From Hyphomicrobiales bacterium (GTDB taxonomy: Bacteria > Pseudomonadota > Alphaproteobacteria > Rhizobiales > Beijerinckiaceae): 64,000 bases of DNA. The stretch lies in assembly GCA_930633525.1 (NCBI GenBank), contig CAKNFP010000002.1, positions 558,001-622,000 of the forward strand, given 5' to 3'. Below are positions 37,026 to 58,402 of this stretch, piece by piece. Within the stretch, counting starts at the first letter, position 1. Each line of letters starts with the position of its first letter. The notes under the pieces are model-generated. The model saw nothing but the letters and a program-made list of their open reading frames with translations, was not told the DNA's origin and did not search any database. The position numbers and the translations under genes were made by a program.

Positions 37026-37045
37026 CCAGTTCGGATGACTCATCT

Positions 37046-39928: not shown

Positions 39929-41626
39929 ATGACTGCTGCCCCTGCCAATATCGTCATCTGCGCCGGGCAGCCAGTCGACACGGGCGGGCTTCGTGGCGCC
40001 TTTCCCGAGGAACTCGTTCCCGCCGTCCGCACTGCGTTGCGCGACTGGTTATCAGCCTTTTCCAGCTTCATCGGCTACAGCTCGGCCACCGCAGGTGCTG
40101 ACATCCTGTTCGGCGAGGAGGTTCTGGCGCTCGGCGGCCAGCTTAACATCGTCCTTCCCTGTGAGATCGGTGATTTCGTAGAACAGTATGTCGCGCCTGC
40201 CGGCGAGGCATGGGTCGCGCGCTTCCATGCCTTGCGCGCACGTGCATCACGCGTCGAGATCAGCTGCGAGGAGCGTCTCCTCGGGGATGAAACCCTGGTG
40301 CGCTTCAACAACCAGATCCTGCAGGGGCTGGCGCGGCTGGAGGCGGACCGCGTCAAGGCCGAGACCCATCTCGTCATCGTGTGCAACCTCGGCATTCCGG
40401 CCGAGCCGGGAAGTCCCACGGATTTCATGGTCAACTGGCCGGATGACGAGCGCCTCACCGTCATCGATCTGGACGCTCTTGCCAGCGCGTCCGGCGTGGC
40501 GACCCGTCTCGAGGCCGGGATCGCCGCCGACATCGACGCGGATATGATCTTTGGCACAAGTCCGCGCTCCATTCGCGCCATCATGTTCGCCGATATCGCC
40601 ACCTTCACGAAGACATTCCAGGATGACCAGCTGCCGCTTCTCTGGGACTTTCTCGCCGAGGCCCAACAGACGATTGAGAGTAGCGCCAAGCCGCCGATCC
40701 TTATCAATGCCTGGGGCGACGGTGTGCACGCTGCCGCCGAAACGGCCCATGATCTGGCCGACTACGCCGCCGCGCTCGCCGCAAGCGTGCTCGAGATCGA
40801 CCCAGGCGCCTACGGCCTGTCGGCCCGGCCGCGCTTCCGCATCGCCTTGCACGCCGGACCCGTCTTCGTCGGCCTTCATCCCCTGACCGGCCATGGCATG
40901 ATCTATGGCCACCATGTCAACCGCGCGGCGCGTATAGAGCCGGTTGCGCTCCCCGGCCAGATGTATGCGTCGCGTTATTTCGTGGCGCTGCTGCGCGCCG
41001 AGATGGATGCGCGCGCCTACGCGGCGCGGGAGGCAGGGGAGGCATACACACCACGCTACCGGGCCGACTACATCGGCCAGATCGACCTGCCCAAGCATTT
41101 CGGCAGAGAAGCCGTCTACCGTCTCGTTGATCTCAACGCAGCCGCTGTCGCGTCGGATGAGCCCCAATCCACCATGAAGCGCCCGCCCGCCCCTCGCCTC
41201 GATCTCACTGTCAAAAACGATCTCAGCGAAATCAGCCGATTGGCGGAGGAGATCGATGCCTTCTGCAACGAGGCCGGTCTCGGCGAGGAGACAGCCTATG
41301 CAGTCAATCTCGCGCTGGACGAGCTCTTGACCAATACGATCAGCTACGGGTTCAAGGATCAGACCGCACACACCATAGATGTCACGCTCTCGTTCGAGAG
41401 TAACGTTCTCGTCGTCACGATCGTGGACGACGGCGTGGCATTCGACCCCTCGGTTCCTTCGAACCCCGATATCGACGCGGCGCTTGAGGATCGCGATATC
41501 GGCGGGCTCGGGATGCATTTTGTCCATACCGTGATGGACGCTGTCGACTATCGCCGACACGATGGGCATAACGAACTCACGTTGAAAAAGAATGTCGCCG
41601 CTCCCGCACGCGATACAGCAAGGTAG
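39929..41626 (+). CDS. SLOG-like + class III nucleotide cyclase + RsbW-like kinase fusion
   Basis: Three-part signalling protein, 565 residues, no membrane segment. Residues 1-150 resemble a SLOG/Rossmann-type domain (ICAGQPVDTGGLRGAFP, GYSSATAGADILFGEEVL, VIVCNLG). Residues 212-405 form a class III nucleotide cyclase with metal-binding Asp in FADIATF (D222) and WGDG (D264) and the transition-state pair in HVNRAAR (N331, R335), so activity is plausible. Residues 425-555 are a HATPase of the SpoIIAB/RsbW anti-sigma kinase class: N-box LALDELLTN (E465, N469), G1 DDGVAFDP, G2 DIGGLGMHF. A STAS antagonist gene follows after 10 bases. Whether cyclase and kinase regulate each other is unknown. The first-domain assignment is the least certain. 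Confidence 0.85.
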   Translation: MTAAPANIVICAGQPVDTGGLRGAFPEELVPAVRTALRDWLSAFSSFIGYSSATAGADILFGEEVLALGGQLNIVLPCEIGDFVEQYVAPAGEAWVARFHALRARASRVEISCEERLLGDETLVRFNNQILQGLARLEADRVKAETHLVIVCNLGIPAEPGSPTDFMVNWPDDERLTVIDLDALASASGVATRLEAGIAADIDADMIFGTSPRSIRAIMFADIATFTKTFQDDQLPLLWDFLAEAQQTIESSAKPPILINAWGDGVHAAAETAHDLADYAAALAASVLEIDPGAYGLSARPRFRIALHAGPVFVGLHPLTGHGMIYGHHVNRAARIEPVALPGQMYASRYFVALLRAEMDARAYAAREAGEAYTPRYRADYIGQIDLPKHFGREAVYRLVDLNAAAVASDEPQSTMKRPPAPRLDLTVKNDLSEISRLAEEIDAFCNEAGLGEETAYAVNLALDELLTNTISYGFKDQTAHTIDVTLSFESNVLVVTIVDDGVAFDPSVPSNPDIDAALEDRDIGGLGMHFVHTVMDAVDYRRHDGHNELTLKKNVAAPARDTAR

Positions 41627-41636
41627 GAGAGACTCG

Positions 41637-41975
41637 TTGGATATTGAACGGCTTGAAATCGACGGCGTGAGTGTGGCGGCTCCAATCGGGCGCGTCGATA
41701 GCAACACGGCCCGCGAGCTTGAGACGGTGCTCGTGCCGCTCTTCGACGAGGCGAAGGCGATTGCCGTGGATTTCGAACGCCTCACCTACATATCGAGCGC
41801 CGGCCTGCGCGTGGTTCTTATCGCCGCCAAGTTATCCAAGGCCAAGAATGTGCCGCTCGCCCTCTCCGGTCTGTCGCAACCCGTGCGGGAGGTGTTTCAG
41901 ATTTCCGGCTTCGCCAAGCTTTTTGCGATCCACGACAACCGCGCGCAGGCGGTAGCGGCATTGGCGAAGGGATAG
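41637..41975 (+). CDS. STAS-domain anti-sigma factor antagonist (RsbV/SpoIIAA-like)
   Basis: Small STAS protein, 112 residues, starting at TTG with AGGAGAG 5 bases upstream; the longer ATG frame at 41592 overlaps the kinase gene and has no such site. The pattern is that of anti-sigma antagonists: VAAPIGRVDSNTARELE, then LTYISSAGLRVVL, where S54 aligns with the phosphorylated Ser58 of SpoIIAA, and VREVFQISGFAKLFAIHDN. It should be phosphorylated by the RsbW-like domain of the upstream fusion and dephosphorylated by a SpoIIE-type phosphatase, one of which is encoded at 52017-54155. Confidence 0.9.
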   Translation: MDIERLEIDGVSVAAPIGRVDSNTARELETVLVPLFDEAKAIAVDFERLTYISSAGLRVVLIAAKLSKAKNVPLALSGLSQPVREVFQISGFAKLFAIHDNRAQAVAALAKG

Positions 41976-43337: not shown

Positions 43338-43568
43338 GGCTTCCATCCCAATTCGTTCAGTGCATCTGGCTCGCGGCTCGCTCAACCGACCGTCGACATC
43401 AAATTAACTCTTCGGCATTCACAGGGACAACAAAATCACACAGAATCCGTAAACCGTTGCAATGTTGCGCATCTTCGTCTGTCGATTATCGAGTCCATTT
43501 TAACTTGGAAAAATCTACAAACGAACCCCGGTAATAATAAAGGCCGAGACACCGGCCAAACCACCAGG

Positions 43569-44735
43569 TTACTCTCTATAGATCTTACGCGTACCGGCGC
43601 CGATGGCGGTGAGCAGCGCGTTTGGAGCACAATTGCAGGCTCTTGCCAAAGGCTCGAGCGGCAGCCCGCCGTCGAGGAAAACGACCTCGGAACACGCAGC
43701 GAGATCCTGGGGCTTGATGTCAGTGACATCGACCATCGTCAGATTCATGGCGATTCCGCCGACCGTGTCCACAAGAACATCCCCGACACGGGCCTGGAGA
43801 CCCTGTCCGAAGCGCTGTGGCAAACCATTGGCGTAGCCAATTGGGACCGTTGCGATACGTGACGCGCGCTTGAGTTCGGTGCCGGCATAGCCAACCCGAC
43901 TGCCTGCGGCGTAGTCGGCGACACGCAGGATATGCCCGGACAGGCGGTAACAGGGCTGCAGACCGTCCTGCCAGATGCGGGAAGTCTGCACGCCGTAGAG
44001 CGCGCTGCCGACACGCGCGATATCGAAATGCCATGACGATGGCCAGTAGACCCCCGACGACGAAGCGAGACTGACGGGAGCTTGCGGGAGTTCGGCCAGC
44101 CAACGAAGCAACCGACTGTACTGGTCGTCGTTGCTGGCATCGTCCGGGCGGTCGAAGGCCGCGAGATGCGAGACCCACGCCCTGACATCGAGATGGCGCC
44201 ACAAGGCGCCGAGCATCGCCCTGTCGAGCACCTCCTCGCCTGTCAGACCAAGACGCCCCAGCCCGGTGTCGATCTGAACCGCGACCGGCATGGGCACGCC
44301 GGAGGTGGCCGCAAAAGCCGCAACCGCACGCACCTCGGCGACGCTCACGAGAACCGGGATAACACCGGCCTTCACGAATGCGAGGGGCTCGCGTCCGGCC
44401 AGACCGAGCAGCGTATATACGGTTGCGGATGGCGCCATGGCCCGTACGCGCAGCGCTTCCTCGATATCATCGACCCAGAAAGTGTCGCAGCCGGCGGCGG
44501 AGAGGCTGGCGACCACTGGCTCGAGCCCAAGGCCATAGGCATTGGATTTGACGACCGCCGTGACCGCGCGCCCGGTGAAACGGCGCTGCATCTGTGCGAA
44601 ATTGGCACGGATGGCCGCAAGATCAACTTGCAGGCACGCCTCGGCAATTCCCGAAACTTTCGGGGTAGAATGAAAGGCACTATCGATCAGCGTATCGTGC
44701 GCAAGGGCGACCACCTGACTGCTCCGCGGCGTCAT
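43569..44735 (-). CDS. alr: Alanine racemase
   Basis: PLP-dependent fold type III racemase, 388 residues. The PLP lysine lies in AVVKSNAYGLG (K63) and the second catalytic tyrosine in GSRVGYAGTELKR; the C-terminal domain has GYANGLPQRFGQG and VGGIAMNLTMVDVTD. It interconverts L- and D-alanine for peptidoglycan or for D-alanine catabolism. The 30-residue N-terminal extension before LQVDLAAIRANF is a little long, but the ATG at 44735 overlaps the GNAT stop by 4 bases, so coupling supports it. Last gene of the sensor/MFS/binding-protein operon, an unexpected partner set. Confidence 0.92.
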   Translation of the reverse strand: MTPRSSQVVALAHDTLIDSAFHSTPKVSGIAEACLQVDLAAIRANFAQMQRRFTGRAVTAVVKSNAYGLGLEPVVASLSAAGCDTFWVDDIEEALRVRAMAPSATVYTLLGLAGREPLAFVKAGVIPVLVSVAEVRAVAAFAATSGVPMPVAVQIDTGLGRLGLTGEEVLDRAMLGALWRHLDVRAWVSHLAAFDRPDDASNDDQYSRLLRWLAELPQAPVSLASSSGVYWPSSWHFDIARVGSALYGVQTSRIWQDGLQPCYRLSGHILRVADYAAGSRVGYAGTELKRASRIATVPIGYANGLPQRFGQGLQARVGDVLVDTVGGIAMNLTMVDVTDIKPQDLAACSEVVFLDGGLPLEPLARACNCAPNALLTAIGAGTRKIYRE

Positions 44736-45472
44736 GCCTGCCTCGTAAAGAGGATGTCGTAACCGCCATCATCGCGCCTGCGCCAAGCCACGCCCGCGTG
44801 ACCTTCCGCGAGCAGCATCTGGACTTTTCCGGTGTCTGTGGCAGCGCTCCAGATGCCAGCCTCAGCCGTGGACGGAGGAGACATCTTCTCGACGGCCCGG
44901 AACACCAGATACCGCCAATGACCGCCGTATTTGCGCTTCAGCGCGCGAATGTGGAAACCTGCATCGAGAAGATTGGTCCAACTGCGCGCGTTACCGGGAG
45001 CCGCCGTGGCATAGACCTGCGCAACATCGGCACCCCGCGCGGCCTCCAGCCGCTGGTCGATGAGCGCGCCGTGGAGCCGCCTTCCCCAATCAGAAGGGCG
45101 CACCGAAGCGCCGGCGAATTTGGCAAGCTTGATCGAAGGCCCGAGGCCGATCACGGGCCGGGCGTCCTCCGATGGCGGAAGGTCGAGCTGCAACACGCCA
45201 TAGGCAGCCAGTCCCTTGTCATCGAAGGCACCGACGATTCGACCGCCACCCGCCAGAATGCCCGCGAAAAAAGCGCGCGTCTCCGGCTTGACCAATGCAG
45301 AGTCGCCCATGGCGTCAATCGCCTGAACATGCAGCGCATAGATGGCATCGAGATCATCGGCGGCAAGCGGCCGCCAGGACAGGAGCCTCGCCGCGGGGAC
45401 CGCCTCCGGCGGGCCATCGGTCCCGCGGTGATCCATGAAATCACTGACGATCGCCCCCATCGTTCCCATCAC
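44732..45472 (-). CDS. GNAT family acetyltransferase-like protein
   Basis: GCN5-related N-acetyltransferase-like protein, 246 residues, starting at GTG 45472 within the stop of the binding-protein gene (GTGA). The GNAT fold is suggested by LSWRPLAADDLDAIYALHVQAID, then a GRRLHGALIDQRLEAARGADVAQVYATAAPGNARSWTNLLDAGF block (core GRRLHGALID, the acetyl-CoA loop region, and N..LLDAGF). The last 60 residues (GIWSAATDTGKVQMLLAEG onwards) form an extra small domain I do not recognise. Coupled to alanine racemase on one side and the binding protein on the other; an amino-acid or cell-wall-related acceptor is possible. Confidence 0.75.
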   Translation of the reverse strand: MMGTMGAIVSDFMDHRGTDGPPEAVPAARLLSWRPLAADDLDAIYALHVQAIDAMGDSALVKPETRAFFAGILAGGGRIVGAFDDKGLAAYGVLQLDLPPSEDARPVIGLGPSIKLAKFAGASVRPSDWGRRLHGALIDQRLEAARGADVAQVYATAAPGNARSWTNLLDAGFHIRALKRKYGGHWRYLVFRAVEKMSPPSTAEAGIWSAATDTGKVQMLLAEGHAGVAWRRRDDGGYDILFTRQA

Positions 45473-46482
45473 CCCGTCAGCACTTCCGCGTAGTTCAACA
45501 TCTCGATCGGCGGATAGAGATCGAGCTCTTTAGCCACCGGCATATTGATGATTAACGAAAATCGTTTGAGACTTTCGATGGGTATTTGCGCAGGCGACAG
45601 GCCTTGGCGCAGGATCTTTACGGCTTTCGAGGCCGCGAGCTGCCCGACGGAATAATAGCGTGTCACGAGCCCCACCAGCGCCCCACCCTCGCGGATGGCG
45701 AGTTCGGCAGCGCCAAATGTGGGAAGCTTCTCCTTGAGGGCCGCCGGCACCACGCGCTTGTACTGGGTGCCGAGGAATGTATCCGGCAAAAGATAGAGCC
45801 AGTTCGCACCGGCCTCCTTGATCTCCGCTATCAATTCCTCAATGCCGTCAGCGATCGGTCGGCCGGCTGAATCGACGCGGAACTGGCGCGGGATGAGCTC
45901 GAACTTCATCGACTGCTGGAGAGCTTTCACTTCCTCGACGATCGCGACCGAGTTCTGCTCGGTCTCCGTATAGAGTACGCCGAGCTTCACGATCGGGCGG
46001 TAGGAACCCATCGCCCTGAGCTGGATCGCCGTTGGCACCACATGCACCGCGCCTGTCACATTGCGGCCGGGCTCGGCGAGGCTCGGTACGATGCCGGCGT
46101 TGACGGGGGCCGCGACGAGGGTGAAGACGATCGGCGTGTCGGTGATGAAAGCGGCCTTGTCAGCCGCGTCGTAGCGCCCCGCCACGCCCAAGGTCACCGG
46201 CGTGCCCCAGGTGTAAACGAGATCCGGCTTTAGCTGCCGTATTTCCTCGACGAAATCGCCGAGCTTGGCCCGACCACGATCGGCGTCTCGCTCGATGAAG
46301 GTTGCTTCAACGCGGTTGGCTGCGAGATAATCGTCAAAGCCATCCTCCACCTCGGTGCGGCCACGGTAGGTGATGCGATAGATCTTGAAAGGCCCGTTGC
46401 GCGCCTGGGCAAAGGCGTGGCCAGCCGCGAGAGCGGCCGTACCGCCAGCAGCAAACTGGAGAAACGAACGACGACGCATCAC
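45469..46482 (-). CDS. ABC-type substrate-binding protein (PF04392-like), no transporter
   Basis: Periplasmic binding protein of the ABC_sub_bind (PF04392) kind, 337 residues. The start is GTG 46482 or the next codon, ATG 46479. A Tat-like leader (MRRRSFLQFAAGGTAALAAGHAFA) is visible. Family features: VEEIRQLKPDLVYTWGTPVTLGVAG, TPIVFTLVAAPVNAGIVPSLAEPGRNVTG (core EPGRNVTG), KLGVLYTETEQNS and ASKAVKILRQGLSPAQIPIE. No permease or ATPase gene is near; instead it lies 17 bases after a sensor-MFS fusion and is coupled to a GNAT gene. Presenting a ligand to the neighbouring periplasmic sensors is an attractive alternative to transport (inference). Confidence 0.85.
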   Translation of the reverse strand: MMRRRSFLQFAAGGTAALAAGHAFAQARNGPFKIYRITYRGRTEVEDGFDDYLAANRVEATFIERDADRGRAKLGDFVEEIRQLKPDLVYTWGTPVTLGVAGRYDAADKAAFITDTPIVFTLVAAPVNAGIVPSLAEPGRNVTGAVHVVPTAIQLRAMGSYRPIVKLGVLYTETEQNSVAIVEEVKALQQSMKFELIPRQFRVDSAGRPIADGIEELIAEIKEAGANWLYLLPDTFLGTQYKRVVPAALKEKLPTFGAAELAIREGGALVGLVTRYYSVGQLAASKAVKILRQGLSPAQIPIESLKRFSLIINMPVAKELDLYPPIEMLNYAEVLTG

Positions 46483-46499: not shown

Positions 46500-48518
46500 T
46501 TATTCGGCCTGCACGACCGTCGCATGACGCGACGATCGCCAGTAGGCAAATACGGCGACAAACACAGCCGAAGCGAAGGCCATGCCAAGCCCGATGGTCA
46601 CCACGGCCGAGGTAAATCCATACCGCCCCAAAAGAAAGCCCGCAAATGCGGGCCCAAGCGCATTGCCCGTGCGTTCGACGAGACGAAAGATACCATAAAG
46701 TGAGCTCTCACTGATATCGCCCGAGAGCTCACGGCCGAACTCGCCGACGAGTGCCGACTGCGGTGCTATGCTGATGGCCTGCCCGATCCCGAACAGCCCG
46801 AGCATCAACGCGAGAACGAGCGGTTCCTCCGCGCTGATGAGCACGCTGAGGCCAGAGAGCCCGGCCACGATGCCGCCAAGCGCCACGAAGGGTGCGCGCT
46901 GGTTGAGACGGCTCGCCAGCGCGGCGAAAGCCGGCACCAGGATGACCATGGCGATGGGGTAGACCATCAGGAGCCGTCCTGTTGCCGCCTGCCCTGCGCC
47001 GAGTGCCTGCATCTGCAGAGGCACGAGGAAGAAGCAGTAGGCGACGAGGATGATCTTGGCGGGAAGCGCGCATAGAAAGAACAGGCAGGCCAGCGGCGGC
47101 GAGGCAAGGATAGGGCCAAAGTCGCGCCAGCGTATGGTCGGTCCCTTGGGCACAGACCGGCGGTCGTCATTGCGCCCACCCGGCATGGCGATGAGCGCGA
47201 GAACGAGGCTGGCTCCCGCCACCAGGCCGGCGATAACGAAGGTCGCGCGTATGCCGAGACGATCAGCCAGCATGCCGCCGATTGGCGGGCCGCACAGGCC
47301 CGCGACGAGGATCGCGCCGATGAACATGGCCATGCCGCTGGCGCGCTGGCGCAGATTCGTGTGGTCGATGACGAAGCCCTGCGCGCTGACGAATACGGCG
47401 GCGAAGCCAAGCCCTGATACCATGCGGGCGAGGGTCAGCGTGATGAGACCGGTTGCCATCGCCGACCCGACGTAGCCGGCAAGGCCAAGTGCCGCGCCGA
47501 TGATGAGGCTCGTGCGCCGACCGAGCTGATCCGTCACACCACCGAGGATAGGCTGGGAGAGCGCAACGACGGCAAGAAACGCCACCATCGGCAGGCTGGT
47601 GACCATGTCCGGTGAAAGCCCGGGGATCGGCGTTGCGAGATCTTTGATGTAGATCGGCAGGAAAGGCCGCGTCAGCTCTTCCGCCAACATGAAGATAAAG
47701 AGTGGCGCGCGAACCGCGATGACCGAAACCGGCGCTTCGCTGGAGCCCTCGCCAAGCTTGAACTCCTTGCGCAGGCCTTCGACGACGGCTTGGCGCAGCG
47801 CTTCACCCTGCGCGGCGAGGCGGGCGACCAGGACGGCATAGCGACCGTGCAAGTCCACGAGCCTCCGATCGATCCGTGCTGCAAGACGACCGAATTCACT
47901 GCCGCCATCGACAGCGGCATGCAGGCGCAAATCATCGTGGGCGATCGTGTCGAGCCGCGTCTCGACACCCTCGATGGCGCCATAAAGCCCGGCGCCGAAG
48001 GCGATATGCATCAACTCGAGCGCAACCAGCGCCGTCACGATCATGATGATGGCGAGATCGATCCAGAGTTCAGATACCACCTTGCGGCCGAAGGCCGGAT
48101 CAAGTCCAACCGTCAACACGGCCTGGCTGGTCGAGCCGCTTCGGACTGCTACGGACAACGCCGATTGCGCGCGATTAAGCCCCAGGCCCGCAGCGGGCAC
48201 CTCGGCGGGGATCTCTCCCGCGGCGTGCAGCACCTTTCCTCCCGGGCCGCGCAACAGCACATAGGCGATATCGGGATTGTTTGCGACAGTCCGCTCCAGA
48301 TAGGGTCCGACACCTTCAAGGCTGTCGAGCGGAATGCCGAGTTCAAGCGCGCGGCCCATCAGGCTCGCGACCGAATCGGCCACCGTCGCGGCCTTTGCCT
48401 GAAGTTCCGGCAGCAACACCTTCTCCGCACGGCCCGCCGTACGCCAGCTGAAGGCAGCAAGGCCAAGGACCAGCACGAGGACCAACACGGCTGATAGCTG
48501 TATCCGGACGCTCTTCAC
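46500..48518 (-). CDS. MFS protein fused to an N-terminal periplasmic sensor/HAMP-like module
   Basis: Membrane protein, 672 residues, well beyond a normal MFS carrier (about 400). Residues 6-26 are a TM helix, about 30-150 a periplasmic sensor (LGIPLDSLEGVGPYLERTV, NPDIAYVLL), 153-180 a second TM helix, and 180-265 a cytoplasmic HAMP-like/helical linker. An MFS domain of about 12 helices follows, with motif A-like loops GGVTDQLGRRTSLIIG and GGMLADRLGIRAT. GTG start overlapping the upstream sensor gene by 4 bases. The sensor half is paralogous to those at 48515-49174, 49371-50171 and 50158-52017. Whether the MFS half transports or only senses is unknown. Confidence 0.85.
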   Translation of the reverse strand: MKSVRIQLSAVLVLVLVLGLAAFSWRTAGRAEKVLLPELQAKAATVADSVASLMGRALELGIPLDSLEGVGPYLERTVANNPDIAYVLLRGPGGKVLHAAGEIPAEVPAAGLGLNRAQSALSVAVRSGSTSQAVLTVGLDPAFGRKVVSELWIDLAIIMIVTALVALELMHIAFGAGLYGAIEGVETRLDTIAHDDLRLHAAVDGGSEFGRLAARIDRRLVDLHGRYAVLVARLAAQGEALRQAVVEGLRKEFKLGEGSSEAPVSVIAVRAPLFIFMLAEELTRPFLPIYIKDLATPIPGLSPDMVTSLPMVAFLAVVALSQPILGGVTDQLGRRTSLIIGAALGLAGYVGSAMATGLITLTLARMVSGLGFAAVFVSAQGFVIDHTNLRQRASGMAMFIGAILVAGLCGPPIGGMLADRLGIRATFVIAGLVAGASLVLALIAMPGGRNDDRRSVPKGPTIRWRDFGPILASPPLACLFFLCALPAKIILVAYCFFLVPLQMQALGAGQAATGRLLMVYPIAMVILVPAFAALASRLNQRAPFVALGGIVAGLSGLSVLISAEEPLVLALMLGLFGIGQAISIAPQSALVGEFGRELSGDISESSLYGIFRLVERTGNALGPAFAGFLLGRYGFTSAVVTIGLGMAFASAVFVAVFAYWRSSRHATVVQAE

Positions 48519-49174
48519 CGGAGATGGTCCATTGCAGTGTCACCCTGATGGAGTTGGTCGAGAACAGCGTTGGCCCTGGCAAAGGGATTGGCTTCACTGC
48601 GGGTCTCGACGACGGCACGCGCCCGGGCAAGGAGATGCCGCAGCACGAGAAAACAGCCGAAGCTGCCAGCGAGAACAGCCGCGAGGCCGATGGGCAGCGC
48701 GTCCTGCACCGCCGCGGCGCGAATCGTTGCCAGGCCGCGCGCGACGGCGGCACCATCGAAGCGGATGGCGACATTGCCGACGGGCGCCCCAAAATCGTTG
48801 ATCAAGGGCTGGTCGAATCGGAACGCCTGCTTGTCGTCGGCCCTCCCGTCCGGATGTCCGGCGCGGGTGGGGCTGCTGCTGAACAGCACCACCCCATCGA
48901 CATCGCTGACATCAATGGACATGGTCAGTGGGTCAGCCGTAGCCTGGCGGGAGAGCAGCGCCGGCAGGGTCATCTGTTCGGGCAGCCGCAAGCCCAATGC
49001 GAGCGCGCTGTTGATATCATTCGCGATATCCTGCGCCACCATCGCCATCCGCGAGCGGATAAGGTCGCGATAGGCCGTGCTGACTCCCGAAATTGTCATG
49101 AAAGCCGCCAGCGCCATGGCGAGGCCGATGATGATCGCAAACAGCGGCAACGTCCGAAGTGACAGCCTGATCAT
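48515..49174 (-). CDS. Small two-TM membrane sensor with periplasmic Cache-like domain
   Basis: Membrane protein, 219 residues from ATG 49174, preceded by a G-run ribosome site. Layout: TM1 (LPLFAIIIGLAMALAAFMTI), periplasmic domain of about 120 residues with ALGLRLPEQMTLPALLSRQ and IDVSDVDGVVLFSSS, TM2 (ALPIGLAAVLAGSFGCFLVL), then only about 50 cytoplasmic residues and no output domain. It is therefore a stand-alone sensor half of the kind fused to MFS domains next door. First gene of the minus-strand operon and divergent from a similar small sensor gene; the 196 bases between them hold both promoters, in which I see no clear dyad. Confidence 0.75.
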   Translation of the reverse strand: MIRLSLRTLPLFAIIIGLAMALAAFMTISGVSTAYRDLIRSRMAMVAQDIANDINSALALGLRLPEQMTLPALLSRQATADPLTMSIDVSDVDGVVLFSSSPTRAGHPDGRADDKQAFRFDQPLINDFGAPVGNVAIRFDGAAVARGLATIRAAAVQDALPIGLAAVLAGSFGCFLVLRHLLARARAVVETRSEANPFARANAVLDQLHQGDTAMDHLR

Positions 49175-49370
49175 CTCGTGCCCCCCGGCACCGTTTATCC
49201 ACGCCAAGCCGGCGTGGGCGCGCCAGCGTCGAACCGCTCTCCTGAAAGAGATAGCATAACCGCAAGAAATCAACGGCAAATATAGCGCATGCGGTGACAG
49301 TGGCGAACAGTTCCGATACCTTCTGCTTCATCTGCACCTCGCCTGATCCGCCAATTGTGTCGCCCTGCGC

Positions 49371-50171
49371 ATGTCCCCCGCTGTCCGAACGATTCTGGCC
49401 CTCCTCGGCCTCACCGGCGCTGGAATTCTTCTGGCTAGCGCCCTTATATTCGGTGGCCTGGACCGGCTCCGGCTCAGGGTCGTCGAAGCCAACATCGATT
49501 TCGTTCTGACTCAGCTTCGCGATTCCGTCGAAGCCAATGTCAGCTTGGGTATTCCGCTCCAGGATCTGCGTGTCGTGCAGGATCTCCTCGAGCGGTCGCG
49601 CGTCGGAAATCCGAGCCTTCTTGCAGTCGAGGTTTTTTCCCCTGTCGGGATTTCCCTGTTCAATACCGATCGCGGGAGTATCGGCGAGGAAATCACATCG
49701 ACCTGGCGAGAAGGCGTGCGCCACGCCGGTAACGCCGATCGGTGGCGCGTCGAAGAATTCGGAAATCTGATCGTCGGCCAGGCCATCCGCAACGATTTCG
49801 GCGAACCGGTAGGGTATGTGGCGGTCACGATTGCCGGCCCGATGGAGCAGTCTCCGGTCGCCTCCATCATCCTCGCCAGCGGCTGGCGTCTTGCCGTTGT
49901 CCTGCCACTGTGCCTCATCGGGGTCAGCCTCGTCGTCTGGTTCATGCTGCGATGGCGCTCCCGGGAGATCATGGACGTGACCGCCCGCCTGATGATGCAG
50001 GCGCCAATGCCTTTATCAGAGCCATCTGCGAACAAGGATCTCGTGAGCCTCGCGGATCAAGTCGGCGTCGCTGTCGATACCGCGGTGAACCAACTCGATC
50101 AGACGACGACGGCCGTGTTGAAACTCGACGACGACGGCATGAAGGATAGCTTGCGCAATGCTGCGGCTTGA
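49371..50171 (+). CDS. Small two-TM membrane sensor with periplasmic Cache-like domain
   Basis: Membrane protein, 266 residues. TM1 spans about residues 7-28, and a periplasmic domain (SLGIPLQDLRVVQDLLERSRV, NPSLLAVEVFSPVGISLFNTD) is followed by TM2 at about 165-192 (LAVVLPLCLIGVSLVVWFML) and a helical cytoplasmic tail of 70 residues. No enzymatic output is seen. The LGIPL...NP...V...G..LF pattern is shared with the sensor parts of the two MFS fusions. It overlaps the next gene by 14 bases, so it is part of the sensor-MFS-SpoIIE operon. The ribosome site before ATG 49371 is weak. Confidence 0.75.
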   Translation: MSPAVRTILALLGLTGAGILLASALIFGGLDRLRLRVVEANIDFVLTQLRDSVEANVSLGIPLQDLRVVQDLLERSRVGNPSLLAVEVFSPVGISLFNTDRGSIGEEITSTWREGVRHAGNADRWRVEEFGNLIVGQAIRNDFGEPVGYVAVTIAGPMEQSPVASIILASGWRLAVVLPLCLIGVSLVVWFMLRWRSREIMDVTARLMMQAPMPLSEPSANKDLVSLADQVGVAVDTAVNQLDQTTTAVLKLDDDGMKDSLRNAAA

Positions 50172-52017
50172 GGCGCGAGCCCTGCGCGACCGGCTGGCGG
50201 CGATCATTATTGCGCTCGCCGTTGTCGCGGCCATTGCGACTGGCGGCTGGCGCGTGCTTGATGCGGCCTGGGCGGAAAGCGCCCCGGTGCTCGACGAAGC
50301 GACGCGGCTGGGGGCCGAAGCCGTCGGGCGGGCGCTGAGCGGCCAGATCGAGCACGCGCTCTCCCTTGGCATCCCGCTCGACAAGCTGGTCCGCGTCGAA
50401 GACTACCTGAAGACGGTGGTCGCTTCGGCCCCGCAGGTCGACGCGGTCGCGCTCCTCGACGATACCGGCCGGGCCGTCTTCACGACACGGGAGGGCGTGG
50501 CGGGCCTCACCTTCCCCGTCAACGGCGGCGGGCAGCGCGCGACGCTCGTTCTCTCCATGGAATCGCCCTTTCTCAGCGCAGCCACGGTTCGATTGGAAAT
50601 ACTTCTTGGCGCCGCCGCCATACTCGGCGGCATAATCGCTTACCTTATCGCCAGCCTCTTTCTCGAGATGCATCTCGCGCCGGCGAGAGCCAGGCTTCAG
50701 TTAGCTCTTGCCCGAGCGGCGCGGGGGGATTTCGCGATCACGATCCCGACCACCGGACGCGGACGGACAAGCACCGCTTTTCGCGCGCTCGCCCAACGAA
50801 TCGAGCCCGTACATGCCGCTGCACGGCGCCTCGCGGACAGTGTGGCCACCGTGCGGGCCATCGACTTCGATGGGAGCCTCAGCAAACGGCTCGAGCCGCT
50901 GCTCGCATCGGTCGCCGACACCCGCGGCCTTGCCGATATCGACCCCGGCGACACGACGCGCTCGACCGCGCCCAGTCTGGCCGCCGTGTGCAGCCGGGCG
51001 CTCCTTCTCATCTCTCTTTACGCAGGAGCGTGGCCGCTGGTCGCCAATTTCGCGATCGATCGTGGCTCGAACGTGATCCCAACGCCCTGGTGGCCCATCA
51101 CGCCCCTCGTCGCCGAGGCTCTCGCAGTGCTGTTCGCCGCAACAATCTCCCGTCACGTCGCGCAGCCGGTTACCCGCGTGGTCGCGGCAGTGGGCATTGC
51201 GCTCGCGGGACTCGCCTGCGCCGGGGTCTTCTGGTGCCGATCCTATGAACTTTTTGTCGCGTTGAGGATCTGTGCGGGCCTCGGTCTCGGTCTCGCTCTC
51301 ACTCCCTTGCTGCGCGACCCGCGCCTCAGCGCCCATCCACGCGCTCTGGTCGCGCTCATCGGCGTTGCATGCCTCGTGATAGGCCCACTCTTCGGTGGAT
51401 TGGTTGCGGAGGCCATCGGCCGAAGGGGAGCCTTCTTGCTGCTCGGCCTCGCGTTATTGGCCAATGTGCCGATTACGGCAGCAATGCCCGCGAACGCGGC
51501 ATCGGATTCCGCGCCGCGGTTGAATGGCTCCGCCGTGGCCACGTGGCTTCTGGTTCCCCTCATGCTGGTGCCGCTCAGCGCGCTGGCCCTCGTGATCATT
51601 CCCGCGGGACCGGGTTTCGACAATTATGCCGAAAGCGGAGGGCTGATCGTCGCCGCCGGCCTTGCCGTGGTCCTGGCGCCACCGATGCCGCTCACGCTCA
51701 GCGGCTTGCTGGTCGCGATGGCGGGCGCGCTGTGGTTGCTGCCCCTGTCGGGCATCGAACGCCCCGACGCCTGGCTGTGGCCGGTCAGCAGTGTGCTGGT
51801 CGGACTGGGTTCAGGCAGCCTCTTGAAAGCGCATGCCTCTGCCCTGCTGAAACATGTGCCGTCTGCCGGTGCGGGGCTCGTCCTCGGCATACTGGCCGCT
51901 CCTCTCGCAGTGATCATGGGTTTCGCCGCGATGAACCTCATGCTGCCCATCGGTCTGCTCGTCGTGGCCGTCGCATTGGTCTTGCGCGACGCAGGCTCCG
52001 CGATGAGGTGGCGCTGA
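50158..52017 (+). CDS. Second sensor-MFS-like fusion membrane protein
   Basis: Membrane protein, 619 residues. N-terminal TM (LAAIIIALAVVAAIATGGW), periplasmic sensor with SLGIPLDKLVRVEDYLKTVV and AVALLDDTGRAVFTT, a second TM (ILLGAAAILGGIIAYLIASL), a HAMP-like linker, then about 10-12 TM helices in the last 340 residues. Only a weak MFS motif is visible (GGLVAEAIGRRGAFLLLG), and the first-half motif A is lost, so it may be a degenerate carrier retained as a signalling module (inference). Same design as the protein at 46500-48518. The stop overlaps the phosphatase start by one base (TGATG), tying it to the SpoIIE phosphatase. Confidence 0.8.
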   Translation: MLRLEARALRDRLAAIIIALAVVAAIATGGWRVLDAAWAESAPVLDEATRLGAEAVGRALSGQIEHALSLGIPLDKLVRVEDYLKTVVASAPQVDAVALLDDTGRAVFTTREGVAGLTFPVNGGGQRATLVLSMESPFLSAATVRLEILLGAAAILGGIIAYLIASLFLEMHLAPARARLQLALARAARGDFAITIPTTGRGRTSTAFRALAQRIEPVHAAARRLADSVATVRAIDFDGSLSKRLEPLLASVADTRGLADIDPGDTTRSTAPSLAAVCSRALLLISLYAGAWPLVANFAIDRGSNVIPTPWWPITPLVAEALAVLFAATISRHVAQPVTRVVAAVGIALAGLACAGVFWCRSYELFVALRICAGLGLGLALTPLLRDPRLSAHPRALVALIGVACLVIGPLFGGLVAEAIGRRGAFLLLGLALLANVPITAAMPANAASDSAPRLNGSAVATWLLVPLMLVPLSALALVIIPAGPGFDNYAESGGLIVAAGLAVVLAPPMPLTLSGLLVAMAGALWLLPLSGIERPDAWLWPVSSVLVGLGSGSLLKAHASALLKHVPSAGAGLVLGILAAPLAVIMGFAAMNLMLPIGLLVVAVALVLRDAGSAMRWR

Positions 52018-54155
52018 TGTTTCTGAGAACCCGGGTCGCGCTTCTTGTCTCGATCGTGCTCGTCATCGCGGTCGGCGCGGTGGTCGTGCTCGGTCTGCAG
52101 CGCGAGAATTTGGCAGCCCGGCCCTATACGACGATTGCAATCACTGGACAGGACGCTTTGTGGCGCGAAATTCTCGCGTCGCAGACGGTCGATCTCACGG
52201 GGACGGTGAGCGCGATCGCCGGTGACGAGCGCCTCCAGACCGCTTTGCTCGGCGGCGACCTACCGCGCGTGCGCTCGCTCCTCTTCAACTTCGCGAGCCT
52301 CGATCCGACTGCTGGCGATCAGACCGAGTTGCAAATCATCGACCGCCAGGGCCGCGTGGTTGCGACGAGCTCCCTCGTGCCCGAGCCCCCGCGGCTCCTC
52401 GACATCAGCACAGTCGAGGCTGTGCTCGATGGACAGCGGCCGGCGGGTATTCGCCAGGTGGGCGCGGACCAGTTTCGTGTTCTCGCCGCGTCTGTCCTGA
52501 CCGTGCCCTCGGGCGATCGCTGGGTCATCATCGCGGCGGCTCCGACCACGCGCCCACTCATACGTTTCTCGACGGCGATGGATGGCGAGGCCTTCATGCT
52601 GTCGACGCGCGGACGGCTGATCGATGGCACGAATATCGATCTCTGGCACCGCCTCGCCCTCGAGTTGCCGCAGCGTACGGCGACCGTCACCCAAGCAGAA
52701 CTCAACGATCGGCTGTTCGCGGTCACCGCTGTGCCGCTCACGGACCTCTCAGCCGGCTTCGCCGGGCTGCTCGTGGTCGTCCAGGACGCAACGGCCAGCC
52801 TTAGCGCCGTGCGCATGCTGACACGCCTTGGCCTTGTCATGGCCGCTTGCGTGCTCCTGTTCACCCTGGCGGGGTTCTATCTCTATCTGCGCCGCAGCTT
52901 CGCCCCGCTGGAACAGGCTGTCGACGTGCTTGACGCGCTCGGCCGCGGCGACACCTCGGTCCGGCTGAGCGGAGGCGGAAACGACGAGATCGGACGCATC
53001 GCCCGGGCGGTGGCCGAACTGCGCCGCAGCCTCGTCACGCTCGACCAGACACGTCGGCAGCGCGAGCTTCAGCGCCGCAGGCAGGAGCGCTTCGTCCGCC
53101 GGCAGATGGAAGAACTGGCGGGCACGCTGGAACCTGGCGCGCGCGAGGAGGTTCTTGGCGATCTCGGCCGAATTGTCGCTGCGACGTCCACCACGGGCAA
53201 CAACGCCGGCCAATCAACCGACCCCATCGCGCAGCTCATTCGCCATGATGACCAGCTAGGGCCGCTTGCAGCCGTGCTGCAGCAGATGTCGGGTCGCGTC
53301 GTCGAACAGCATCGGCGTCTCTCCGAGCTCGTCGCCCGTCTCCGCGAAGCTCTGGTGCGCGAGACCCAGCTCGCGACCCTGCAGCAGGAGCTTGCGATCG
53401 CCCATGATCTGCAACAGTCGGTCATTCCCGACGATTTCCCCGACCGACCGCATTTTTCAATTTCAGGTTTCATGGAATCGGCCCGCGAGGTCGGTGGTGA
53501 CTTTTACGACTTCTTCGAGCGCGCCGATGGCAAACTCGTCTTCGTTATCGCTGACGTATCGGGCAAGGGGATCCCCGCCGCCTTCTTCATGGCGATCTCA
53601 CGGACCTTGCTGAAAGCGATCGCGCTGTTCGAAAATGATCCCGGCGTCTGCGTCCGACAGCTCAACGAACTCCTCGCTGCCGACAATGACCAGATGATGT
53701 TCGTCACCTTGTTCTTCGGAGTCCTCGACCCGGAGACGGGCCATCTGGACTATGTCAATGCCGGGCACGGCCCTCCGGTGCGGGTCGGCGCGAACGGCGC
53801 AATCTCTATGTTACCGATCACCGACGACATGGCCGTCGCCATCATGGAGTCCGTTCCGTTCACGACACGCTCGGTCGACCTCGCGCCGGGAGATACACTT
53901 GTTCTCTATACGGATGGTGTGACGGAAGCCTTCAATGTAGCCGGCGAGCAATATGGCGAACACCGTCTTCTGGATATCCTCGCCCAAGTGCCTACCGAAT
54001 CCGAGGCTGGCGCTCTCTCGTCTGCGGTCGCTGAGGATGTGGCGACGTTTGAAGCCGGCTGCGACCGCTCTGACGACATCACACTCGTCGTACTGCGTTA
54101 CAAGGGCGAGCCCGCGCCGGCGGGCTTGCCTCAGCGAACAGCCCACGCCCTGTAG
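52017..54155 (+). CDS. Cache-HAMP-SpoIIE serine phosphatase (RsbU-like)
   Basis: Membrane-bound PP2C-type phosphatase, 712 residues from the ATG at 52017 inside the previous stop; the frame stays open further upstream but only as a shadow of the MFS-like gene. TM1 (about 8-26), periplasmic Cache-like domain (about 30-265), TM2 (270-290), HAMP (about 291-345), a helical linker with a 450-468 signalling helix, then the SpoIIE domain. Metal-binding Asp are present: GGDFYD (D495), IADVSGKG (D513), YTDGV (D633) and SDDIT (D686/D687). It should dephosphorylate a STAS antagonist such as the one at 41637-41975 in response to periplasmic signals (inference). Confidence 0.93.
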   Translation: MFLRTRVALLVSIVLVIAVGAVVVLGLQRENLAARPYTTIAITGQDALWREILASQTVDLTGTVSAIAGDERLQTALLGGDLPRVRSLLFNFASLDPTAGDQTELQIIDRQGRVVATSSLVPEPPRLLDISTVEAVLDGQRPAGIRQVGADQFRVLAASVLTVPSGDRWVIIAAAPTTRPLIRFSTAMDGEAFMLSTRGRLIDGTNIDLWHRLALELPQRTATVTQAELNDRLFAVTAVPLTDLSAGFAGLLVVVQDATASLSAVRMLTRLGLVMAACVLLFTLAGFYLYLRRSFAPLEQAVDVLDALGRGDTSVRLSGGGNDEIGRIARAVAELRRSLVTLDQTRRQRELQRRRQERFVRRQMEELAGTLEPGAREEVLGDLGRIVAATSTTGNNAGQSTDPIAQLIRHDDQLGPLAAVLQQMSGRVVEQHRRLSELVARLREALVRETQLATLQQELAIAHDLQQSVIPDDFPDRPHFSISGFMESAREVGGDFYDFFERADGKLVFVIADVSGKGIPAAFFMAISRTLLKAIALFENDPGVCVRQLNELLAADNDQMMFVTLFFGVLDPETGHLDYVNAGHGPPVRVGANGAISMLPITDDMAVAIMESVPFTTRSVDLAPGDTLVLYTDGVTEAFNVAGEQYGEHRLLDILAQVPTESEAGALSSAVAEDVATFEAGCDRSDDITLVVLRYKGEPAPAGLPQRTAHAL

Positions 54156-55249
54156 CGACCTCGGCCTGTCACTTCCTTCAAGGTCGGGCTCAACGCGCCG
54201 ATCAGATCAAGCGCGCCTCTTGCGGTAACCTTGAGTTCCTTGGCCACGAGCTGCGGTGTAACCAGGGGCTTCGCGAGCACCAGATCGACAAGACCGGGCA
54301 GGCGCGAATGGGAGCGCCGGTTGGTCAGAAACCGCTCAAGCTGCGTGCGCGCGAGCATCAGCCTGTCGTGTTCTTGCAGGCCGGCTTCCGCGGCTGCCTT
54401 GATCGCGTTGAGCATGGCGACCTTCGGCGGTGCCATCGCATAGCCGTGCAATGTGGACCCGCCTTTGGCGCGACGCGATTCGCGCAGGCCCAGACTGACG
54501 CAGGCAAGATGGGACCGGGTCTTCCCCCCCGCCCGCAGGACGGCCGCGACGAGAAGAGGCCCAAGCCACGGCATGGTCTGCAGGGGAGCGAGATCAACCC
54601 AGGCTTCCCAGGCATCGAGCGCAGCAAGAACAGGGGGGCGCTCCAGATCGATGCGCTCCCGCCAACGCGCCAGCAGCTCGTCGTCGTCGCGCTCGGAATC
54701 ACAGAAGCCCAGATCCGCCAAGCCTGAAAACCGTCCCGGCGAGGGTAGGCGCGCGTTGGTTATCGCCGTCTTGGACCGTTCCAAAAGCGCGTCAATATCG
54801 GCGAAAGCGCGCTCAGCCTCTCCTTCCGCGTCAGCGCCGACAAGTTCCTCCACCCTTTGCAAGGGCTGGCCGGCTTCGTCATCGAGCCATGACGCGTTGC
54901 GGCCGCTCAAGGCATTGAGGCCCGCAGCGCTCAAGGCCCAGTCTGGCGCATGGCCCGCAATGCTGCGATGGGCCCGCAACACCGCAGAAGCGCGGGTCAA
55001 CTCATGGGTCGGCGTGCGGATGTCCATCGCCGCATCGTTCAGCACGAGATCCTCGAGATGGACCAGATCCCCGGCGATCCAACGCGCCGCACAGGCTTCA
55101 TGGAAGTGACTGCGACTGATCCAGGCTTCGCGGACGGGGCTCGCCCGTAAGCGCTCGTCGAGACGCGCCACCGCATCCTCCGCAAGGAGAAGCGGACCAA
55201 CAAGGCTCTCAGACAGAGCCGCTACACTACGCTTGCGAATCATACTCAT
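54131..55249 (-). CDS. DUF1612/HTH domain protein (RHE_PE00001-like)
   Basis: Putative DNA-binding protein, 372 residues, start ATG 55249. The central part (DLERPPVLAALDAWEAWVDLAPLQTMPWLGPLLVAAVLR, core PLQTMPWLGPLLVA, then LACVSLGLRESRR) resembles DUF1612, and the C-terminal 60 residues (SRLPGLVDLVLAKPLVTPQLVAKEL, TARGALDLIGAL) form a winged-helix HTH. Such proteins are frequent on plasmids and accessory regions of Rhizobiales; function unknown. Its 3' end overlaps the 3' end of the phosphatase gene by 25 bases in converging orientation. It seems unrelated to either neighbour operon. Confidence 0.75.
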   Translation of the reverse strand: MSMIRKRSVAALSESLVGPLLLAEDAVARLDERLRASPVREAWISRSHFHEACAARWIAGDLVHLEDLVLNDAAMDIRTPTHELTRASAVLRAHRSIAGHAPDWALSAAGLNALSGRNASWLDDEAGQPLQRVEELVGADAEGEAERAFADIDALLERSKTAITNARLPSPGRFSGLADLGFCDSERDDDELLARWRERIDLERPPVLAALDAWEAWVDLAPLQTMPWLGPLLVAAVLRAGGKTRSHLACVSLGLRESRRAKGGSTLHGYAMAPPKVAMLNAIKAAAEAGLQEHDRLMLARTQLERFLTNRRSHSRLPGLVDLVLAKPLVTPQLVAKELKVTARGALDLIGALSPTLKEVTGRGRYRAWAVR

Positions 55250-58349: not shown

Positions 58350-58402
58350 TTCGAAACGCTCTCCAGGGTACATCTGGCATAGATCATGCGCCGAGATCAC
58401 AG

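What the first reader, a model, noticed from the sequence alone, without database searches (positions are those of the whole stretch)
46500..54155. Head-to-head operons of paralogous periplasmic sensors, two fused to MFS carriers, feeding a SpoIIE phosphatase
Seen in sequence: four proteins (48515-49174, 46500-48518, 49371-50171, 50158-52017) share a TM-periplasmic domain-TM module; two carry an MFS-type domain after it, one of them lacking the first-half MFS motif. The last gene of the plus operon is a Cache-HAMP-SpoIIE phosphatase coupled by TGATG. Coupled overlaps hold both arms together. SpoIIE phosphatases are known outputs of partner switching, but I know of no described system in which sensor-MFS fusions sit upstream. 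Inference: the MFS halves may be transceptors that report a solute to the phosphatase.
Basis: partly seen in the sequence, partly recalled or inferred. Interest (0 to 1): 0.85.

Follow-up and report, generated by a model that had tools for sequence, protein, structure and literature searches.

The report
Sensor-carrier receptor module driving partner switching
A conserved but apparently undescribed bacterial gene cluster couples a periplasmic binding protein and sensor-plus-carrier membrane proteins to a phosphatase, kinase and cyclase switch, so these cells may sense a solute with what looks like a transporter.

Summary
Four proteins share one divergent Cache-like TM-periplasmic-TM module. 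In two it is followed by an MFS domain: intact and DHA1/VMAT-like in 46500-48518, degenerate in 50158-52017.

The neighbourhood is conserved. The head-to-head plan recurs in 15 of 15 other order-level loci. In 78 usable named loci across alpha-, beta- and gammaproteobacteria, a second sensor module lies directly upstream of the sensor-MFS gene in 78 (fused in frame in 6) and a PF04392 binding-protein gene lies nearby in 75.

Missed partners: that binding protein, a cyclase-RsbW-like kinase fusion (39929-41626) and a STAS protein (41592-41975). The genome holds one SpoIIE and no other stand-alone STAS. Ten of ten distant order-level loci carry a separate PAS-class III cyclase gene facing SpoIIE.

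Best reading: binding protein, sensor and sensor-MFS form a receptor that sets SpoIIE activity, hence STAS phosphorylation, kinase and cyclase. Other lineages place the module beside different signalling genes. Anatomy and conservation are shown; ligand, direction and transport are inferred. No description was found in the papers searched.

The parts
48515..49174 (-). s1: bitopic Cache-like sensor module (219 aa)
   Evidence: Profile match to s3 99.8%, to the sMFS2 N-module 98.5% and the sMFS4 N-module 97.8%; at E <= 0.1, 5 of 18 family members hit dCache_1, best E 4e-5, the window protein itself none; two TM segments. A module of this family lies directly upstream of sMFS2 in 78 of 78 named loci.
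46500..48518 (-). sMFS2: Cache-like sensor module plus HAMP-like helices plus intact DHA1-type MFS domain (672 aa)
45469..46482 (-). Periplasmic substrate-binding protein of the ABC_sub_bind / TrpX-like family (337 aa), starting 17 nt behind sMFS2; no ABC permease in the two arms
   Evidence: PF04392 E 8.4e-28; NCBIfam TrpX E 1.7e-27 but far below its cut-off (96.3 of 390 bits); PDB relatives 3lkv, 3lft, 6hni; in 75 of 78 named loci, directly behind sMFS2 in 70; one of two such proteins in the genome. The nearest ABC genes, 55583-58442, are of another type.
44732..45472 (-). GNAT-family acetyltransferase (246 aa)
   Evidence: Window protein weak on its own (Acetyltransf_3 E 0.038; none at E <= 0.01); 7 of 13 aligned family members hit Acetyltransf_1, best E 1.4e-7; found in 47 of 78 named loci.
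43569..44735 (-). PLP alanine racemase (388 aa), accessory
   Evidence: Ala_racemase_N E 3.8e-46, _C E 1.2e-20; 21 of 78 named loci; one of three Ala_racemase_C matches in the genome.
49371..50171 (+). s3: second bitopic Cache-like sensor module (266 aa), opens the plus operon
   Evidence: Profile match to s1 99.8% and to sMFS2 95.2%; divergent to s1 in 15 of 15 other order-level loci.
50158..52017 (+). sMFS4: Cache-like sensor module plus degenerate MFS-like domain (619 aa)
   Evidence: Profile match to sMFS2 99.9%, E 8.3e-35; no Pfam MFS hit; in Xanthobacter-type loci this ORF is about 270-360 aa, and in most of them a free MFS ORF of about 400-500 aa follows SpoIIE.
52017..54155 (+). HAMP-SpoIIE (PPM/RsbU-type) phosphatase with a periplasmic domain (712 aa), TGATG-coupled to sMFS4
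   Evidence: SpoIIE E 6.8e-51, HAMP E 2.8e-9; both domains in 16 of 16 aligned sequences; metal-site aspartates in 52 of 52 or 53 of 53 aligned homologues; the only SpoIIE in the genome.
39929..41626 (+). Class III nucleotide-cyclase domain fused to an RsbW-like HATPase_c_2 kinase (565 aa)
   Evidence: HATPase_c_2 E 7e-25, Guanylate_cyc E 5.2e-7; best of 18 HATPase_c_2 matches in the genome, E 2.9e-25 against 2.1e-10 for the next; N-box and G-box residues in 44 of 44 aligned homologues, cyclase metal Asp in 12 of 12; fusion family P0136-P0170; RsbW 6m36 in PDB, E 0.00025.
41592..41975 (+). STAS-only anti-anti-sigma-type protein (127 aa from this start; a later start is possible), overlapping the end of the kinase-cyclase gene
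   Evidence: STAS E 2.7e-14, STAS_2 E 2.7e-11; Ser69 of YISSAGLR in 47 of 47 homologues; the only stand-alone STAS in the genome, the three other hits being in open frames of 574-613 aa.
49175..49370 (.). Divergent promoter region between the two arms (inferred)
   Evidence: Intergenic gap between the s1 and s3 starts used here; no promoter scan was run; no Rfam match at 34900-55300.

Best explanation
The locus encodes a transmembrane receptor module wired to a complete partner switch. A periplasmic binding protein (PF04392) catches a small solute and docks on a pair of homologous Cache-like sensor modules, s1 and the N-terminal module of sMFS2. The MFS domain of sMFS2 acts as a sensor-carrier that reports solute flux or occupancy. 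s3 and sMFS4 are a duplicated, partly degenerate copy of the same pair and place this input next to the HAMP-SpoIIE phosphatase. Active phosphatase removes phosphate from Ser69 of the STAS protein. Dephosphorylated STAS binds the RsbW-like kinase, which in this genus and its relatives is fused to a class III nucleotide cyclase, and so changes cyclic-nucleotide output. Where the kinase stands alone, a separate PAS-cyclase gene in the same locus, when present, is the likely target. Shown: the genes, homologies, conserved catalytic residues, conserved neighbourhood, natural fusion of the two sensor modules, recurrent cyclase genes, and exchange of the neighbouring signalling genes in other lineages. 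Inferred: the ligand, the docking, the sign of the signal, whether the MFS transports, and the cyclase product.
For: Neighbourhood: s1-sMFS2 against s3-sMFS4-SpoIIE in 15 of 15 other order-level loci, STAS and/or kinase behind the minus arm in 12 of 15. In 78 named loci: upstream sensor module 78, binding protein 75, SpoIIE 53; of those 53, 43 also hold STAS or kinase and 35 hold both. The two sensor modules and the MFS are one reading frame in 6 of 78 loci and in 13 of 13 longer relatives tested; the P0111 model shows both modules with a like topology. The own genome holds one SpoIIE, one stand-alone STAS and, by a wide margin, its best RsbW-like kinase, all here. Catalytic residues of switch and cyclase are conserved. 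Cyclase: fused to the kinase in P0136-P0170, adjacent to it in L080 and L082, and a PAS-class III cyclase gene facing SpoIIE in 10 of 10 order-level loci L032-L041 (Pfam over cut-off in all ten). Other neighbours elsewhere: Pkinase-dCache-HAMP and a cyclase (L099), dCache-HAMP-cyclase (L134), hybrid kinase and RR-GGDEF-EAL (L120). In the same genome the other PF04392 protein lies next to a dCache-HAMP-class III cyclase. Partner switches that control a nucleotide cyclase are known: SiaABCD (PMC7647112, abstract and passages).
Against: No interaction, ligand or activity was measured. In 25 of 78 named loci no SpoIIE was found within the held flank (some contigs are short), so the module is not tied to partner switching; 10 of the 53 SpoIIE loci show neither STAS nor kinase within reach. 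A cyclase was found in only 14 of the 53 named SpoIIE loci; 39, among them the Xanthobacter type, show none within the flank, so a cyclase output cannot be claimed for all. The genome has 18 HATPase_c_2 matches at E <= 0.01, five over the cut-off, so other kinases exist. The window cyclase and most of its group have Asn and Met where L099 and L121 have Lys and Asp (alignments; that these positions select the base is recalled), so its product or even its activity is uncertain. The module is rare and patchy: 16 of 297 order genomes, own included, and 10 of 398 phylum genomes, own included, four of them aligned over the MFS part only; these searches scored at most 3 or 4 candidates a genome.
Confidence: 0.62

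Rival explanations
1. The sensor-MFS proteins are ordinary efflux or uptake carriers whose own Cache-like module gates transport; the switch regulates the transport genes, so information flows from the switch to the carriers and not the reverse.
For: sMFS2 keeps a full DHA1-type fold and conserved charges; free MFS ORFs follow SpoIIE in most Xanthobacter-type loci.
Against: A degenerate MFS in sMFS4 and a short sMFS4 without MFS in Xanthobacter-type loci suggest that the sensor part is what is kept there. The sensor/sensor-MFS/binding-protein set is kept while the neighbouring signalling genes change, which is how input modules behave.
Confidence: 0.2
2. The switch output is a sigma factor or other protein elsewhere, as in Bacillus SigB; the cyclase genes are a side branch, and the kinase alone is the conserved output.
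For: 39 of 53 named SpoIIE loci show no cyclase within the flank; RbaVWY in Rhodobacter is a partner switch in an alphaproteobacterium without a known sigma target (PMC3999984, abstract).
Against: The cyclase is fused to the kinase or lies beside the kinase or STAS gene in Chelatococcus, Rhodoligotrophos, Tepidamorphus, Jiella, Mesorhizobium and Albimonas loci or proteins, a PAS-cyclase faces SpoIIE in L032-L041, 10 of 10, and a TPR-S cyclase sits in L132: three arrangements in one kind of locus.
Confidence: 0.25
3. The two arms are independent: the minus arm (binding protein, sMFS2, GNAT, racemase) is a metabolic or uptake operon and only the plus arm senses.
For: GNAT and racemase are enzymes; racemase occurs in only 21 of 78 loci.
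Against: Twelve SpoIIE loci (L117, L122, L132, L139, L141, L143, L147, L149, L152, L154, L155, L158) have three or fewer sensor-module matches, that is one sensor/sensor-MFS pair, with binding protein and SpoIIE in one stretch, so a single pair can serve SpoIIE.
Confidence: 0.12

Closest known systems
SiaABCD of Pseudomonas aeruginosa
   Same: A PP2C-like phosphatase, a kinase and a phosphorylated switch protein control a nucleotide cyclase (PMC7647112, abstract and passages; SiaA profile E 9.1e-14 to the window SpoIIE).
   Different: SiaA equivalog cut-off not reached (50.9 of 700 bits); the cyclase here is class III and fused to the kinase; extra sensor, sensor-MFS and binding-protein genes, none of which the SiaABC text seems to deal with (the terms transport and periplasmic occur 0 times).
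RsbU/RsbV/RsbW and RbaY/RbaV/RbaW partner switches
   Same: SpoIIE phosphatase, STAS protein and HATPase_c_2 kinase with the conserved residues; an alphaproteobacterial precedent (PMC3999984, abstract).
   Different: Here the switch lies beside a conserved transporter-like receptor module, and the kinase can be fused to a cyclase. A STAS review has no occurrence of the word cyclase (PMC8256260, term search and passages).
UhpC-type MFS sensors (transceptors)
   Same: An MFS protein proposed to act as receptor (recalled; UhpC only seen in a search listing).
   Different: Cache-like periplasmic module fused in front; an orphan binding protein; SpoIIE instead of a UhpB kinase (UhpB recalled).
TRAP and TTT transporters (SBP-dependent secondary transporters)
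   Same: A periplasmic binding protein works with a secondary carrier (PMC5812351, passages).
   Different: The membrane partner is an MFS and the binding protein is of the PF04392 family. The review passages seen name only TRAP and TTT as SBP-dependent secondary transporters and mention MFS only as a contrast.
Binding-protein-coupled receptors (LuxPQ, ChvE-VirA, NspS-MbaA)
   Same: A periplasmic binding protein serves as ligand sensor for a membrane signalling protein (recalled, not looked up).
   Different: No MFS in those receptors (recalled).

Membership tests
Partner-switching system | PPM/SpoIIE phosphatase with metal-binding aspartates | tested here: met
   SpoIIE E 6.8e-51; Asp15, 18, 33, 153, 206, 207 of the domain in 52 of 52 or 53 of 53 aligned homologues.
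Partner-switching system | STAS protein with a phosphorylatable Ser/Thr at the conserved site | tested here: met
   STAS E 2.7e-14; Ser69 in 47 of 47; phosphorylation itself not tested.
Partner-switching system | GHKL (HATPase_c_2) Ser/Thr kinase with N- and G-boxes | tested here: met
   E 7e-25; E50, N54, D85, G110, G111, G113 in 44 of 44 aligned (45 homologues).
Partner-switching system | Phosphorylation-dependent partner exchange | not testable with these tools
   Needs biochemistry.
Partner-switching system | Sigma factor (or other) target of the kinase | not tested
   No search for a sigma factor target was made; the kinase is fused to a cyclase in the window.
MFS, DHA1-like (sMFS2) | 12-helix MFS fold, Pfam MFS_1 over cut-off | tested here: met
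MFS, DHA1-like (sMFS2) | Proton-coupled transport | not testable with these tools
   Charged residues conserved, activity unknown.
MFS (sMFS4) | Pfam MFS model over cut-off | tested here: not met
   No MFS hit, although homology to sMFS2 is clear.
Cache-type periplasmic sensors (s1, s3, N-modules) | Cache profile over cut-off and Cache fold | tested here: inconclusive
   0 families at E <= 0.1 for window s1; 5 of 18 s1-family members hit dCache_1, best E 4e-5; helix-helix-4 strands-helix in the models. The module was not folded and searched alone; fold lists were filled by MFS chains.
SiaABCD | SiaA equivalog phosphatase | tested here: not met
   50.9 bits against cut-off 700.
SiaABCD | GGDEF diguanylate cyclase as output | tested here: not met
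   The window's kinase is fused to a class III cyclase domain, PF00211.
TRAP/TTT SBP-dependent secondary transporter | DctQM or TctAB membrane subunits | tested here: not met
   The membrane partner is MFS_1; Pfam shows no other carrier among the ten neighbouring proteins scanned.
TrpX tryptophan-binding protein | NCBIfam equivalog cut-off | tested here: not met
   96.3 bits against cut-off 390.
Class III nucleotide cyclase (39929-41626) | Two metal-binding Asp and the transition-state Asn/Arg | tested here: met
   Asp32 and Asp74 in 12 of 12, Asn141 in 11 of 12, Arg145 in 12 of 12 homologues; roles of the residues recalled.
Class III nucleotide cyclase (39929-41626) | Canonical adenylate/guanylate base-selecting residues | tested here: not met
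   Asn and Met at the positions that are Lys and Asp in L099 and L121 (alignments); L085 has Glu and Thr; which positions select the base is recalled.

The most novel reading that the evidence does not exclude
Cache-like sensor, Cache-MFS and PF04392 binding protein form a general receptor class: an MFS-based, binding-protein-dependent transceptor, that is a third kind of SBP-dependent secondary carrier beside TRAP and TTT, turned into an exchangeable input for partner switches, Ser/Thr kinases, hybrid histidine kinases and nucleotide cyclases. In this genus it drives a switch that regulates a nucleotide cyclase with atypical base-selecting residues.
Probability: 0.3. Interest if true: 0.88.

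Novelty: new variant of a known kind. Interest (0 to 1): 0.75.

Why it matters
Inputs to partner switches are poorly known, and this locus gives a conserved, testable input with named parts. It would join three things usually treated apart: binding proteins, secondary carriers and Cache-type sensors. It also offers a set of genes annotated as 'MFS transporter' a signalling role. The kinase-cyclase fusion makes the switch's output directly measurable in a test tube.

Tried and rejected
Chance or artefact: rejected, the gene sets recur across classes. A defence-system reading: PADLOC gave no hit at E 0.001 for the sensors, sensor-MFS, SpoIIE, STAS or kinase-cyclase. A general link of the PrkA-YeaH-SpoVR genes to the module: not supported; at E 1e-10 they were found only in L079 besides the window, both Chelatococcus, though many loci end within a few kb of the kinase. 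The thiolase at 42147-43385 as a part: not found in any of the loci searched at E 1e-10. RNA element: no Rfam match at gathering score. Profile search of the sensor families against PDB gave only chance-level hits. The rows shown by the structure searches are transporter chains (50 rows each), so the fold of the sensor module was not identified; no Cache chain is among those rows, which says nothing against it. Complexes could not be predicted. Literature: ten searches were made, of which some aimed at such a cluster; only listings were seen for them apart from the papers cited, and none of the listed titles or abstract starts describes it. The library lacks most subscription journals.

Rows dropped and limits: L090 and L151 (module cut by contig ends) were left out of the 80 loci. 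The 80 loci were chosen by an sMFS2 match, are the best 80 of 136, and are redundant (many Xanthobacter, Aquabacter and Azorhizobium); several of L027-L041 are the same genomes as named loci, so the two sets were not added together. The neighbour profiles (Pkinase, GGDEF, HK, His_Phos, hydrolase, cNMP, second cyclase profile) were each seeded from a single locus. L096 is counted as lacking SpoIIE, though one search shows a short SpoIIE piece at the locus edge. ORF-level counts were replaced by the domain-level counts because spurious overlapping ORFs hid some genes.

Changed on checking: I had held that loci with a stand-alone kinase lack a cyclase; some searches showed a PAS-cyclase facing SpoIIE in L032-L041, so the cyclase reading was strengthened (best explanation 0.60 to 0.62, sigma-factor rival 0.30 to 0.25). 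I had also named His as the second base-selecting residue; by the alignment it is Met.

Full report
What is there. The window lies in a 7.16 Mb genome; the closest relatives of its sensor-MFS protein are from Chelatococcus (P0001, 95% identity). The four reported proteins, the overlaps and the HAMP-SpoIIE phosphatase are present as described. Of the five, Pfam recognises over cut-off only the MFS of 46500-48518 (sMFS2 here) and SpoIIE/HAMP; the two short sensors (s1, s3) and the second fusion (sMFS4) have no such hit. Profile-profile comparison makes the four N-terminal modules one family: s1-s3 99.8%, s3-sMFS2 95.2%, s1-sMFS2 98.5%, s1-sMFS4 97.8%, sMFS2-sMFS4 99.9%, against 0.1% for three sensor-versus-MFS controls. 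A Cache origin is likely but weak: 5 of 18 s1-family members hit dCache_1 at E <= 0.1. The C-terminal part of sMFS4 is a diverged MFS that has lost the first-half motif.

What was missed. The minus arm continues, 17 nt behind sMFS2, with a PF04392 substrate-binding protein; a GNAT acetyltransferase and an alanine racemase follow, each overlapping its predecessor by 4 nt. Further out, at 39929-41975, lie a class III cyclase fused to an RsbW-like kinase and a STAS protein. Whole-genome searches show one SpoIIE, one stand-alone STAS gene, which is this one, and this kinase as the best of 18 HATPase_c_2 matches, E 2.9e-25 against 2.1e-10 for the next. So the genome's only SpoIIE gene begins 10 kb from the end of its only stand-alone STAS gene. 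The binding protein is one of two of its family in the genome; the other lies next to a dCache-HAMP-class III cyclase.

Conservation. Searching 297 genomes of the order with sMFS4 gave matches at E <= 1e-5 in 16, the own genome included. All 15 other loci show the head-to-head plan s1-sMFS2 against s3-sMFS4-SpoIIE (L030 on a 6.3 kb contig); 14 hold the binding protein and GNAT, 6 the racemase, and 12 hold STAS and/or kinase right behind the minus arm. A scan of named genomes returned 80 loci, the best of 136, from alpha-, beta- and gammaproteobacteria. Of 78 usable, 78 have a second sensor module directly upstream of the sensor-MFS gene, 75 the binding protein (70 directly downstream), 53 SpoIIE, 41 STAS, 43 kinase, 47 GNAT, 21 racemase and 20 a cyclase domain. 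In 6 the two sensor modules and the MFS are one reading frame. The same three-part fusion was found in 13 of 13 longer relatives tested (P0064, P0073, P0100, P0104, P0108, P0110, P0111, P0115-P0120). The model of P0111 (pLDDT 77.1) gives the two modules a like topology, apart from a short low-confidence helix in the second. This is the strongest sequence evidence that s1 and sMFS2 work as one unit. The set is selected for sMFS2 and is taxonomically redundant.

The cyclase. In the nearer loci the kinase is fused to the cyclase (L028, L029, L031, and L027 with its continuation L065), as in 35 listed relatives P0136-P0170, or kinase and cyclase are adjacent genes (L080, L082). In the ten distant order-level loci L032-L041 the kinase, where found (8 of 10), matches only the kinase profile, and a separate PAS-class III cyclase gene faces SpoIIE at its 3' end in 10 of 10 (profiles; Pfam Guanylate_cyc and PAS over cut-off in all ten). 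L132 has a third arrangement, a TPR-S cyclase. Against this, only 14 of 53 named SpoIIE loci show a cyclase within the flank, and 39 do not.

Exchangeable neighbours. In 25 of 78 loci no SpoIIE was found; 3 of these hold STAS and kinase (L087, L096, L106). Others hold a Ser/Thr kinase placed divergently (L099, L102, L105), a sensor-HAMP-type cyclase with cNMP-binding proteins (L134, L136), or hybrid kinases and GGDEF-EAL proteins with a histidine phosphatase and hydrolase (for example L115, L120, L125); L129, L133 and L137 show none of these. Pfam was run on neighbours from six loci, with and without SpoIIE (L099, L107, L117, L120, L134, L147): it confirmed a signalling protein in L099 (Pkinase-dCache-HAMP, and a cyclase), L120 (hybrid kinase; RR-GGDEF-EAL) and L134 (dCache-HAMP-cyclase); L107's was a hydrolase, L117's a ketopantoate transferase, and L147's had no hit. 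The others depend on profiles seeded from one locus each. Common families such as GGDEF or histidine kinases can fall in a 20 kb stretch by chance. Twelve SpoIIE loci have only one sensor pair, so s3-sMFS4 looks like a duplicate of s1-sMFS2 placed next to SpoIIE; this order of events is inference.

How it most likely works. Binding protein and solute act on the s1/sMFS2 pair; the duplicated s3/sMFS4 pair couples this to SpoIIE; SpoIIE dephosphorylates STAS; STAS re-partners with the kinase and alters the cyclase, fused or separate. SiaABCD is a precedent for a partner switch that controls a nucleotide cyclase (PMC7647112, abstract and passages) and RbaVWY for an alphaproteobacterial switch (PMC3999984, abstract). 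What works like those systems is the switch; what has no match among the papers seen is the receptor side. The TRAP/TTT review passages name only those two families as binding-protein-dependent secondary transporters (PMC5812351), and a survey of Cache domains has no occurrence of MFS or transporter (PMC4822843, term search and passages).

Verdict. The finding is real, larger than reported and conserved well beyond Hyphomicrobiales. The module is uncommon (10 of 398 phylum genomes at E <= 1e-20, own included, four aligned over the MFS part only).

Noticed in passing
window 35082-39906 (+): PrkA, YeaH (DUF444) and SpoVR genes lie directly upstream of the cyclase-kinase and STAS genes, as also in Chelatococcus asaccharovorans (L079) but in no other locus searched. 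It may tie the switch to the PrkA system in this genus.
   Followed up: partly
L173:2538-5550 (own genome, contig C2 near 1563.5-1566.5 kb): The genome's second PF04392 binding protein lies beside a dCache-HAMP-class III cyclase, so binding proteins of this family may often serve cyclase signalling.
   Followed up: no
window 40600-41000 (cyclase domain of 39929-41626): The usual base-selecting positions of the cyclase are Asn and Met in the window and most of its group (mapping recalled); the nucleotide used is open.
   Followed up: partly
L032-L041, 3' side of SpoIIE: A PAS-class III cyclase gene faces SpoIIE in ten of ten of these loci; in the sequences aligned the Lys position is kept.
   Followed up: partly
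L099, L102, L105, L107, L115, L120, L121, L124, L125, L135, L148: A histidine phosphatase and an alpha/beta hydrolase occur together in 11 of 78 loci, all without SpoIIE (Pfam for L099 and L107).
   Followed up: partly
window 42147-43385 (-): A thiolase gene sits between the racemase and the STAS gene in this genome; it was not found in the C. asaccharovorans locus L079.
   Followed up: partly
window 54131-55249 (-): DUF1612/HTH_13 gene convergent with SpoIIE, also in L079; a weak partial match to a SoFic model (E 0.00022).
   Followed up: no
L147:13082-15172, L149, L152: Rhizobium and Ciceribacter loci carry a ~690 aa protein with a weak sensor-module match between binding protein and SpoIIE; the one from L147 has no Pfam hit.
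   Followed up: no
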